Source of the DNA: Enhydrobacter aerosaccus
GTDB taxonomy: Bacteria > Pseudomonadota > Alphaproteobacteria > Reyranellales > Reyranellaceae
NCBI RefSeq assembly: GCF_900167455.1
Contig: NZ_FUWJ01000005.1
Location: 124,001 to 188,000 of the forward strand
Direction: 5' to 3'
Length of the DNA: 64,000 nt
Shown here: positions 42,596-56,122 of the stretch, in pieces
How the letters are laid out: each line of letters begins with the position of its first letter
Position numbering within the stretch: position 1 is the first letter of the stretch
The notes under the pieces: model-generated
Seen by the model: only the letters and a program-made list of their open reading frames with translations
Database searches by the model: none
What the model was told of the DNA's origin: nothing
Made by a program: the position numbers and the translations under genes

Positions 42596-42705
42596 GGGCA
42601 ATCGCCTATGCAAAGATTTCCCGTCATCCCGAGCGAAGCCGAGCGGAGCGAGCCCTGCAGGCGGCTTCGCTCGGGATGACGAAATGACTTCATAGGCGAT
42701 TGCCC
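42596..42705. repeat. 110-base nested inverted-repeat element (dispersed repeat, copy A)
   Basis: Outer arms beginning GGGCAATCGCCTATG (42596-42610) and ending CATAGGCGATTGCCC (42691-42705) are a perfect 15-bp inverted repeat. Inside are 19-bp perfect arms, CGTCATCCCGAGCGAAGCC (42622-42640) and its complement (42663-42681). A related element lies at 60091-60273, and a shorter relative at 56032-56122. It has no coding capacity and fills most of the gap before poxB. It looks like a non-autonomous dispersed element of the REP/MITE kind. Confidence 0.8.
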
Positions 42706-53166: not shown

Positions 53167-54633
53167 CTATTCCACACCACCTCGTTCGCGGATCAGCGCG
53201 GCGATCTCGGGGCGGCCGAAATAGGTCGCCCAGCCCAGCGCCGTCGCCTTGAACTTGTCGTCGCGGACATTGGGGTCGGCACCGGCGTCGAGCAGAAGAC
53301 GCGCCAGATCGATCGCACCGCTCTCGACGGTCATGTGCAAGGCCGTGTGGTTGCAGCCCCACATCGGCCGCTTGGCGCTCACGGCAACACCGTGGGCGAT
53401 CAGCCATCGAATGGCGGTCAGGTTCCTCTTGTTGACCGCAAGATGCAGCGCGATCGTATCGCGCCCCTCCGGCCCGATGCGCGCGGGGTCGTCGCGCAGC
53501 ATGGCTTCCGCCGCCGCGTAACGTCCCAGGTTCACCGCGGTCAGGAAATCGAGCTTCGCGCCGGCATTCAGCAGAAGATCGATCACCGCCGCATCGGCAT
53601 TCTCCAGCGAGGCGGTCGTCACCGGCGTGGCACCCGCCGCATCGATGGCATTCGGATCGGCACCGAGTTCGAGCAGGAGGCGCACCATCCTCACCCTGTT
53701 CTTGGCGGCGGCATGGTGCAGGACCGTCCGGCGATGCTGGTTGCGCGTCATGCGCGCCACCAGCAGGTCCGGCCGGCGGGCGATCATCACCCGGACGTCG
53801 TCGACGCGATCGAGGGCAATCGCGCTCCAGAGGGTCAAGGTCGCGCCATGGGCCAGCAGATACTCGGCCACATCCTCGCGCACCCGCGCAAAGCAGGTCG
53901 CCCAGCCCAGCACGCCAATCCCGTAATCGTCGCCCTTGCCCTCGACATCGGCGCCCGCCTCGACCAGCAGCCGAATGGTCTCCAGGTCGCCATGGACCAC
54001 GGCGAAATGCAGCGGCGTCGCATTGTCCGGGAAATCCCGAGGATCGAGATCGGCGCCGCGCTCGATCAACAGCCGGATTGCCTCATGCCGGTTGCGCAGG
54101 GCGGCCAGATGCAGCGCCGTGGCCTTCTTGAGGCCGCCGCCCATCGCGTCAATCAGCTCGGGATGGGCATCGAGATGGGCGCGGAGTTCGGCGACATTGC
54201 CGTCCTGCGCCGCGCTGAGGATGGCACGCACCTCCCGCCCCTCCGATTCCGGGCGGCCCACCCTCTCCCAGAGCGTCCGGGTCAATATCTCGATCGCGTC
54301 GTGGCCATGCTCCTTGGCGATCTGCATCACCGTACGGCCATCGCTGTCCGGCGTCGCCGGATCGAAGCCGGCGGCGAAAGCGCGCCGCACAGCCTCGACA
54401 TCGCCTGCTTGCGCGGCATCGAACACGCGCCGGCTTTCCCGATCGGTGGCGGCAATGCCGTCGACATGCGCCTTCAGGGCGCGCCAGCTCGCGAAGCCAT
54501 AGGCACGTGCGAGGGCAAGCTGGGCCTCGTGGAGGCGTGCAGTCGGACTTTTGACCCGCAGCTCGGCAAGCTGTTGCTTGGCGGTTTTCTTGAGCCAAAG
54601 GATGTTGGCTTTGGCAGGCAGGACCTGCGGCAT
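53167..54633 (-). CDS. Ankyrin-repeat protein
   Basis: A 488-residue protein built mainly of ankyrin repeats. An N-terminal basic helical part (about 1-60, LPAKANILWLKKTAKQQLAE) is followed by repeated units such as KATALHLAALRNRHEAIRLL, ATPLHFAVVHGDLETIRLLV, RTVLHHAAAKNRVRMVRLLL and HTALHMTVESGAIDLARLLL. At least eight repeats can be counted, some degenerate. It has no signal peptide, so protein-protein binding in the cytoplasm is expected, with unknown partners. The start ATG 54633 has AAGAAGG upstream, but that site lies within a hairpin arm (54640-54688), so translation may be controlled. Confidence 0.9.
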   Translation of the reverse strand: MPQVLPAKANILWLKKTAKQQLAELRVKSPTARLHEAQLALARAYGFASWRALKAHVDGIAATDRESRRVFDAAQAGDVEAVRRAFAAGFDPATPDSDGRTVMQIAKEHGHDAIEILTRTLWERVGRPESEGREVRAILSAAQDGNVAELRAHLDAHPELIDAMGGGLKKATALHLAALRNRHEAIRLLIERGADLDPRDFPDNATPLHFAVVHGDLETIRLLVEAGADVEGKGDDYGIGVLGWATCFARVREDVAEYLLAHGATLTLWSAIALDRVDDVRVMIARRPDLLVARMTRNQHRRTVLHHAAAKNRVRMVRLLLELGADPNAIDAAGATPVTTASLENADAAVIDLLLNAGAKLDFLTAVNLGRYAAAEAMLRDDPARIGPEGRDTIALHLAVNKRNLTAIRWLIAHGVAVSAKRPMWGCNHTALHMTVESGAIDLARLLLDAGADPNVRDDKFKATALGWATYFGRPEIAALIRERGGVE

Positions 54634-54639
54634 GGCAAA

Positions 54640-54688
54640 CCTTCTTTCTTCGCGCCCGGCGACCGCAACTCTCGGGCAAGAAAGAAGG
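54640..54688 (-). promoter_or_regulatory. 5' leader hairpin masking the ribosome binding site of the ankyrin gene
   Basis: On the transcript, CCTTCTTTCTT (from 54688 leftward to 54678, read as its complement) can pair fully with AAGAAAGAAGG (54650 to 54640), and GCCCG pairs with CGGGC just inside. The second arm contains the purine-rich ribosome site and ends seven bases before the ATG. The stem of 11 plus about 5 pairs would hide the site. It could act as an RNA thermometer or as the off state of a regulator. Confidence 0.6.
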
Positions 54689-54723
54689 AGGATGTCAGCG
54701 TGACGCTGGAGGCGGGTTCAACC

Positions 54724-54771
54724 CTTTACGCGGTCCGTCGGTCGCCTTCTCGACCGGCGGCAAGTGTAAAG
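54724..54771 (-). terminator. Stem-loop after the serine hydrolase gene
   Basis: CTTTAC (54724-54729) pairs with GTAAAG (54766-54771), and CGGTCG (54739-54744) pairs with CGACCG (54751-54756), in the gap downstream of the leftward serine hydrolase gene. The interrupted stem could end that transcript before the ankyrin gene. There is no clear T run. Confidence 0.35.
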
Positions 54772-54822
54772 GCGGCTCGCGGCGGCCGTCAACGGACGAA
54801 CGGCAGCGTGGACGTGAATGCT

Positions 54823-55941
54823 CTACAGGGAAGCGTAGACGGCGCGCTCGAAGGTCTCGAAGGCGGCAACGGCCCGAGCATCGTAGAACGGCAGCAGCTG
54901 CGTCGCCCACACGCCCGTCACCTTCTTCACCGGATCGATCCAGTAGTAGGAATTGGCGAGGCCGGCCCAGGCGAGGCTGCCGGCCGAACGGCGCCCCGGG
55001 AAGGGTTCGGGGTTGATCATGAAGGTGAGCCCCCATTCCATGCCGTCGACGAAATCCATGTCGGCACTGCGGCCGGGGATCTGGGTCTTGAGCGGCCGGC
55101 AGCGCACCTCGCCCATGGCGTTCTTCGACATCGACGCCACCGTCTCCGGCTTCAGCACCTGCACGCCGTCGAGCGCGCCCTGCCCCAGGATCATGCGCAC
55201 GAACCGGAGATAATCGCCGACAGTCGAGTAGAGCGCGCCACCGCCCATGAAGACTTCCGGCTCCTGATTCAGTTCGTGGTCGGTGGCCACGAAGCCGTCG
55301 GTTTCGGCCCGCACATGCACCGCCGCCTTGCGTGGCCGCTGCGTGGCACCGATCCTGAAGCCGGTATCGACCATGCCGAGCGGCTCGAACAGGTTCTCCC
55401 GCAGGTACTGGTCGAGCCGGACACCACTTGCCGCCTCGACCATAAGACCGGCCCAGTCGATGCCGGTGCTGTATTCCCACTGCTCGCCGGGATCGAACAG
55501 CAGCGGTGTTTCCAGGACCGCCCGCGTTCCCGGTTTGGGGACGCCCTTGAGCTGGACATAGCGATAGATGTCGGCGTTCCAGGTGTCGTAGCCCAGTCCC
55601 GCCGTATGCGTCAGCAGATGCCGTAGCGTGATCGGCCGCTTCGGCAGGCGCGTGTGCACCGTGCCATCGGCATCGATGCCCACCAGCACCTCCTTGGCGC
55701 CGATCTCCGGCACCAGATCCGCCGCCTGCGCATCGAGCGAGAGCTTGCCGCGCTCGACGAGCTGCAGGGCGGCCGCTCCCGTCACCGCCTTGGTCATCGA
55801 CGCGATCCAGATCACGCTGTCGGGCTTCAGGACCCCTTCGGCACCCTGGAAGATCACGCCGCCATCCGTTGCCGCCGCCGCGACCACGCCGGGTACATCG
55901 CCCGCGCGTACGGCGTCCTTCAGGGTATTGCCGATGTCCAT
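54823..55941 (-). CDS. Serine hydrolase of the class C beta-lactamase family
   Basis: A 372-residue member of the beta-lactamase/penicillin-binding-protein-like esterases. The active-site motif is Ser48-Met-Thr-Lys51 (WIASMTKAVTGAAAL), the second motif is Tyr-Ser in EQWEYSTGIDWAG, and LRHLLTHTAGLGYD is the family landmark. The expected third motif near the C-terminus is replaced by the SLAWAGLANSYYWIDP region. No signal peptide is seen, so an esterase-like role in the cytoplasm is more likely than antibiotic resistance. ATG 55941 follows GAGGGG; an ATG four codons earlier is possible. Confidence 0.88.
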   Translation of the reverse strand: MDIGNTLKDAVRAGDVPGVVAAAATDGGVIFQGAEGVLKPDSVIWIASMTKAVTGAAALQLVERGKLSLDAQAADLVPEIGAKEVLVGIDADGTVHTRLPKRPITLRHLLTHTAGLGYDTWNADIYRYVQLKGVPKPGTRAVLETPLLFDPGEQWEYSTGIDWAGLMVEAASGVRLDQYLRENLFEPLGMVDTGFRIGATQRPRKAAVHVRAETDGFVATDHELNQEPEVFMGGGALYSTVGDYLRFVRMILGQGALDGVQVLKPETVASMSKNAMGEVRCRPLKTQIPGRSADMDFVDGMEWGLTFMINPEPFPGRRSAGSLAWAGLANSYYWIDPVKKVTGVWATQLLPFYDARAVAAFETFERAVYASL

Positions 55942-56031
55942 GGTGCCCCTCAATTCATGGCCCTGAATATGGCGACATTTCCGGACCCAGCGCGAGCGAA
56001 GACTTTTCTCTCTGCGGCGCGATCGACCGAA

Positions 56032-56122
56032 GATCCCTCGGCCTGCGGCCTCGGGATGACACCATCGTCGATCCGCACGATGCGCTCCCTGATCGGTGTC
56101 ATCCCGAGCACCGCGAGGGATC
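56032..56122. repeat. Inverted-repeat element related to the dispersed hairpin family (copy C)
   Basis: GATCCCTCG (56032-56040) pairs with CGAGGGATC (56114-56122), and CTCGGGATGACACC (56050-56063) pairs with GGTGTCATCCCGAG (56095-56108). The GTCATCCCGAG core is shared with the elements at 42.6 and 60.1 kb. It lies between the serine hydrolase start and the helicase gene's end. Confidence 0.7.

What the first reader, a model, noticed from the sequence alone, without database searches (positions are those of the whole stretch)
54640..54688. Leader hairpin that would hide the ankyrin gene's ribosome binding site
An 11-bp perfect stem extended by GCCCG/CGGGC includes the purine-rich ribosome site and ends seven bases before the start codon. 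Such an arrangement can act as a thermometer or as a ligand- or protein-controlled switch. The arms are not explained by any repeat family seen in the window.
Basis: partly seen in the sequence, partly recalled or inferred. Interest (0 to 1): 0.6.

Follow-up and report, generated by a model that had tools for sequence, protein, structure and literature searches.

The report
Double-pseudoknot leader RNA hiding ribosome site
The hairpin is the last third of a previously undescribed structured RNA, conserved across Proteobacteria and beyond, that covers the whole mRNA leader, hides the ribosome-binding site, and always precedes proteins starting with the same small uncharacterised domain.

Summary
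The hairpin is real, and it is one part of something larger. The minus-strand leader of the ankyrin gene (54759-54631) is a conserved RNA of about 129 nt: P1, P2, the reported hairpin (P3, with the Shine-Dalgarno in its 3' arm) and two pseudoknots. PK1 joins the P1-P2 linker to the P3 loop; PK2 joins the P1 loop to bases after P2.

In 65 aligned copies, 28 of 33 pairs show two-sided compensatory changes (382 cells against 95 in shuffles). Both pseudoknots covary although neither was built into the search models. A -35 box sits at a fixed distance upstream, so the RNA is probably the entire 5' UTR. I found it in alpha-, beta- and gammaproteobacteria and in Gemmatirosa. No Rfam family matches.

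The downstream genes share only a basic N-terminal domain of about 60 aa. The rest is ankyrin, glyoxalase, TPR, DUF1835 or methyltransferase. DUF1835 proteins without that domain lack the RNA.

Best explanation: a translational off-element bound by the N-terminal domain of its own product (autoregulation, about 0.5 and inferred). The main rival is a riboswitch for an unknown ligand. A thermometer is unlikely: the ribosome site stays paired past 50 C in folding predictions.

The parts
54631..54759 (-). whole conserved leader RNA (type I), from just 5' of P1 to the start codon
   Evidence: covariance models R1/R2 match it at 117 and 102 bits; covariation in 65 copies
54763..54792 (-). predicted sigma-70-type promoter, TTGACG - 18 nt - TACACT; start of transcription expected near 54756
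   Evidence: TTGAC at 30-35 nt upstream in 31 of 65 copies against 4.7% of control 86-mers
54740..54755 (-). P1 hairpin GGUCG-AGAAGG-CGACC
   Evidence: four of five pairs with two-sided changes
54729..54735 (-). PK1 5' strand GACCGCG
   Evidence: pairs with 54661-54667; 6 or more contiguous bp in 63 of 65 copies
54661..54667 (-). PK1 3' strand UGCGGUC in the loop of P3
54745..54747 (-). PK2 5' strand AGG in the P1 loop
   Evidence: P1 loop against post-P2 complementarity: mean score 10.98 vs 7.79 +/- 0.41 shuffled
54710..54712 (-). PK2 3' strand CCU just after P2
54714..54724 (-). P2 hairpin GGGU-UGA-ACCC, flanked by conserved AAA and (A/G)CC
   Evidence: all four pairs with two-sided changes, 100% paired
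54640..54688 (-). P3, the reported hairpin: P3a 11 bp and P3b 5 bp; the 3' arm contains the Shine-Dalgarno
   Evidence: P3a 11 of 12 and P3b 5 of 5 pairs with two-sided changes; SD inside P3a
53167..54633 (-). regulated gene: 488 aa, basic N-terminal domain (about residues 1-60) followed by ankyrin repeats
   Evidence: N-domain homology to other RNA-linked genes
54454..54633 (-). coding region of the shared N-terminal domain
   Evidence: (three helices, pLDDT 81)

Best explanation
The leader from about +1 to the start codon is one compact cis-regulatory RNA. P1, P2 and P3 are held together by two pseudoknots, and in the folded form the Shine-Dalgarno is locked in P3a, so translation is off or low. 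The most likely effector is the basic N-terminal domain of the encoded protein itself, which would bind the folded leader and keep it shut (negative feedback, as with ribosomal-protein leaders). The RNA and the N-domain would then be a portable regulatory cassette placed in front of different C-terminal modules. Shown here: conserved structure, both pseudoknots, SD inside P3a, promoter at fixed spacing, association with the N-domain. Inferred: that the fold represses, that something modulates it, and that the N-domain is what binds.
For: Covariation: 28 of 33 pairs, 382 two-sided cells against 95 shuffled. PK1 and PK2 covary although neither is modelled in the CMs. SD fully in P3a in 57 of 62 leaders, 4 unpaired nt before the start codon in 55 of 62. 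Fixed -35 spacing. An N-domain HMM built from 13 proteins (12 found by protein homology plus the window gene) hits 46 of 49 downstream proteins found through the RNA; two of the 49 are near-copies of seed proteins, and the three misses show a divergent version by eye. C-terminal parts differ: ankyrin, ankyrin+glyoxalase, glyoxalase, TPR, DUF1835, methyltransferase. Reverse test: 38 of 40 strong N-domain genes in the window's family carry this leader or a shortened relative (one of the 38 only a weak model match), and the other two have cut or rearranged upstream sequence. DUF1835 proteins lacking the N-domain (Nonomuraea, Paenibacillus) lack the RNA. N-domain net charge +9.0 per 100 residues against -3.4 for the rest, higher in 60 of 60.
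Against: No binding, probing or expression data. Promoter, leader and N-terminus could travel together by 5'-end gene fusion without the domain binding the RNA. No solved structure resembles the N-domain and no known RNA-binding family matches above cut-off. The shortened (type II) leaders of N-domain+glyoxalase genes have no P3, so P3-based SD masking is not universal. The RNA's highly conserved junction nucleotides are equally typical of ligand aptamers.
Confidence: 0.5

Rival explanations
1. A riboswitch: the double-pseudoknot core (RAAGGG-P2-CCCACC and the junctions) binds a small molecule or ion, which stabilises or releases the SD-masking P3. The N-domain merely travels with the leader.
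For: Compact tertiary-looking fold with strongly conserved non-paired nucleotides; one RNA controls several enzyme-like products, as if they answer one signal.
Against: Known riboswitches usually sit before diverse genes of a pathway, not before one shared protein domain; no transporter or biosynthetic gene was found downstream in about 70 copies.
Confidence: 0.33
2. A masked ribosome site opened by another trans-acting factor (small RNA, helicase or other protein), with no contact to its own product.
For: The SD is predicted fully paired, so something must open it; P3a's arms covary.
Against: Would not explain two conserved pseudoknots far from the SD or the exclusive N-domain association.
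Confidence: 0.1
3. RNA thermometer.
For: SD inside a hairpin next to the start codon.
Against: Predicted SD unpairing is at most 4% at 50 C and 8% at 60 C (no pseudoknot modelled); pseudoknots and conserved unpaired bases are not needed for melting.
Confidence: 0.03
4. Alternative-pairing switch in which the SD-like J1/2-P2 segment (AAAGGG) captures the 5' arm of P3a and frees the SD.
For: Average complementarity of 6.3 bp between the segment and the 5' arm.
Against: No covariation: score 13.9 observed against 13.7 +/- 0.24 with arms shuffled among sequences, whereas the real SD arm scores 21.9 against 15.2. The likeness follows from both being SD-like.
Confidence: 0.04

Closest known systems
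Ribosomal-protein-type autoregulatory leaders (general knowledge)
   Same: Structured 5' leader that masks the start region and precedes one protein family, with a basic, possibly RNA-binding product
   Different: Product is not a ribosomal protein; the shared part is a small N-terminal domain fused to unrelated C-terminal modules; binding not shown
Pseudoknotted translational riboswitches such as SAM-II and preQ1-II (general knowledge)
   Same: Compact pseudoknotted fold directly upstream of the start codon that controls SD access
   Different: No Rfam match for any such family; two pseudoknots joining P1 loop-post-P2 and J1/2-P3 loop; ligand unknown
odc1 (speF-like) alphaproteobacterial leader element, PMC8632094
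   Same: Hairpin loop pairs with nucleotides near the 5' end of the leader
   Different: odc1 works with a short upstream ORF and one downstream enzyme gene; here the RNA ends at the gene's own SD, with P1, P2 and a second pseudoknot
RNA thermometers
   Same: SD in a stem near the start codon
   Different: Stem far too stable, and conserved tertiary elements

Membership tests
any Rfam 15 RNA family | covariance-model match in the leader | tested here: not met
   no match over the leaders of 23 loci/window even at E up to 1 (5 for the window)
structured cis-regulatory leader RNA | conserved secondary structure with compensatory changes | tested here: met
structured cis-regulatory leader RNA | lies between promoter and start codon, SD in the structure | tested here: met
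riboswitch | direct binding of a small ligand | not testable with these tools
   needs in-line or SHAPE probing
riboswitch | found before diverse genes linked by metabolism | tested here: not met
   all genuine hits precede N-domain genes
autoregulatory protein leader | RNA always precedes the gene of one protein or domain family | tested here: met
autoregulatory protein leader | product binds its own leader | not testable with these tools
   only charge is suggestive
RNA thermometer | SD opens in the physiological temperature range | tested here: not met
   predicted P(unpaired) at most 0.04 at 50 C

The most novel reading that the evidence does not exclude
The N-terminal domain is a new RNA-binding domain, and with the double-pseudoknot leader it forms a mobile self-regulating cassette that bacteria in at least two phyla have placed in front of unrelated effector modules.
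Probability: 0.45. Interest if true: 0.9.

Novelty: new variant of a known kind. Interest (0 to 1): 0.8.

Why it matters
It appears to be a new class of translational leader RNA, absent from Rfam 15 and from the discovery papers I could read, with a fold supported by strong covariation. It comes with its own testable partner. If the N-domain binds the RNA, a nameless domain family shared by ankyrin, glyoxalase, TPR, DUF1835 and methyltransferase proteins gets a molecular function. If instead a metabolite binds, the RNA is an orphan riboswitch whose ligand would reveal what those proteins respond to.

Tried and rejected
Thermometer: rejected on predicted stability. Alternative pairing by an SD decoy: complementarity exists but does not covary. 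Link to ankyrin repeats: rejected, since copies precede proteins with other C-terminal parts. Upstream ORF control: the TTG after AAAGGG in the window is not conserved in other subgroups (by eye). Single-sequence folding was uninformative. PDB sequence and fold searches of the N-domain gave nothing significant. Plasmid search with the full protein gave no match; other queries did. Hits set aside as false: L080 (tsf gene behind a terminator-like hairpin), L084, and an internal hit L101:1145-1251. Type II helix GGGCGCA/UGCGCCC was dropped because the divergent copy L173 does not keep it. A profile scan of viral contigs could not be run. The 224-candidate paper (PMC5737381) is not held, so its supplement was not checked; the 'GUCCY-hairpin' of PMC2864571 could not be compared because only its name is given there.

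Full report
OBSERVATION. The stem is present as described: CCTTCTTTCTT 54640-54650 and AAGAAAGAAGG 54678-54688, extended by GCCCG/CGGGC. The gene is on the minus strand (ATG 54633-54631, 488 aa, ankyrin repeats), and six unpaired bases separate the stem from the ATG. Taken alone the hairpin is not decisive: the window has 8 perfect stems of this size against 1.9 expected, and the leader folds no better than many shuffles.

HOMOLOGUES. A protein search of one genome per species gave 12 homologues, from Bradyrhizobium (65% identity) to Rhodobacteraceae. All 12 carry the same leader. That alignment already supported a structure with P1, P2, P3 and a pseudoknot in which the P3 loop pairs with the P1-P2 linker. 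The window and its Bradyrhizobium relative have GACCGC/GCGGUC where the others have GUCCGC/GCGGAC, a compensatory swap.

FAMILY SEARCH. Covariance model R1 and then R2 were run on genomes: 8 of 385 drawn from the class with R1; 16 of 75 in the window's family; 18 of 329 drawn from the phylum, two of which I judge false; 8 of 274 in a second class; 7 of 199 in a third group. Named plasmid records extend it to Variovorax, Methylosinus, two Burkholderia, Azospirillum, Pseudomonas and Gemmatirosa kalamazoonensis (Gemmatimonadota), so at least two phyla. Vibrio campbellii has a copy too divergent for the model, but with the linker and loop complement CACUCGC/GCGAGUG (by eye).

STRUCTURE. On 65 aligned copies, 94.7% of pair cells are standard pairs; 28 of 33 pairs show two-sided changes; 382 two-sided cells against 95 in shuffles; sliding the partners by 1-3 columns leaves at most 61 such cells. 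This alignment was fitted to P1-P3, which favours those helices. The pseudoknots were not in the model. PK1 has 6 or more contiguous pairs in 63 of 65 copies; mean 6.6 bp against 5.4 +/- 0.12 when partners are shuffled. PK2, P1 loop with bases after P2, scores 10.98 against 7.79 +/- 0.41, with variants such as CAAG/CUUG, CUGG/CCAG, GUUUG/CAAAC, CCGAG/CUCGG and CGAU/AUCG. PK2 is weak or absent in a few copies (L074, L075, L082, L083).

TRANSCRIPT AND RIBOSOME SITE. TTGAC occurs 30-35 nt upstream of the model start in 31 of 65 copies; the chance of TTGAC anywhere in a control 86-mer is 4.7%. In the window the predicted promoter is 54792-54763. The RNA is thus probably the whole 5' UTR. The bases best able to pair with the anti-SD lie entirely in P3a in 57 of 62 copies, and P3a ends 4 nt before the start codon in 55 of 62. 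Predicted SD opening is at most 4% at 50 C (pseudoknots not modelled).

WHAT IT CONTROLS. Every genuine hit with an intact downstream gene precedes a protein that starts with the same domain (LxxLKKxAKxLL...LxDAQxxxAREYGFxSWxxLK). A domain HMM from the 13 starting proteins detects 46 of 49 downstream proteins found through the RNA; the other three have a recognisable divergent form by eye. The C-terminal parts are unrelated: ankyrin, ankyrin plus glyoxalase, glyoxalase alone (197 aa), TPR, DUF1835, methyltransferase. Conversely, of 40 strong N-domain genes in the window's family, 16 have this leader and 22 a shorter relative (one of these by a weak model match only), and the two others have cut or rearranged upstream sequence. 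DUF1835 proteins of Nonomuraea and Paenibacillus lack the domain and lack the RNA. The domain is basic (+9.0 per 100 residues against -3.4 for the rest, 60 of 60), is predicted as three helices (pLDDT 81), and has only a weak, below-cut-off likeness to the N-terminus of Pfam Glyoxalase_8.

TYPE II LEADERS. Twenty-one N-domain+glyoxalase genes in the family have a leader of about 80 nt with a P1-like stem, a PK2-like pairing (GUAGG/CCUAC, once GCAGG/CCUGC) and the same AAGGG-P2-CCCACC core, but no P3 or PK1. Within the genus the covariation is slight; one distant copy has CGGG/CCCG instead. It may be the minimal core of the same RNA; this is suggestive, not established.

MECHANISM. Shown: a conserved double-pseudoknot leader that buries the ribosome site and is tied to one protein domain. 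Inferred: it lowers translation and is regulated. I favour binding by the N-domain (autoregulation), because the domain is the only shared feature of the products and is basic. A caveat: promoter, leader and N-terminus can be inherited together by gene fusion, so association alone does not prove contact. A riboswitch remains a serious rival.

NOVELTY. No Rfam 15 family matches any leader tested. Discovery papers that could be read do not mention these genes, and text searches found nothing. Supplements and the 2017 set of 224 candidates could not be read, so an earlier listing cannot be excluded.

Noticed in passing
L129-L147, L150, L152 (about 80 nt before the start codon): A second, shorter leader type before N-domain+glyoxalase genes shares the AAGGG-P2-CCCACC core but lacks P3 and PK1; several copies have an AUG inside P2 that is in frame with the gene in some species and closed by a stop in others.
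   Followed up: partly
L163: Gemmatirosa kalamazoonensis protein behind the RNA has two N-domain-like stretches, ankyrin-like repeats and a C-terminal stretch resembling a Clp N-domain (by eye).
   Followed up: no
L092, L120, L091: RNA-linked gammaproteobacterial proteins with a further N-terminal repeat before DUF1835 (L092, L120) or another, unidentified C-terminal part (L091).
   Followed up: no
L088:1629-2717: The RNA-linked methyltransferase protein gives a PADLOC hit to mad2 (methylation-associated defence), E 1.8e-27, probably through the general methyltransferase domain.
   Followed up: no
42622-42681 and 56050-56108: Two inverted repeats sharing the GTCATCCCGA / CTCGGGATGAC sequence, probably an intergenic repeat family unrelated to the leader.
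   Followed up: no
54823-55953 (-): Upstream neighbour is a beta-lactamase-fold hydrolase, NCBIfam best hit methyl acetate hydrolase AcmB but below cut-off.
   Followed up: no
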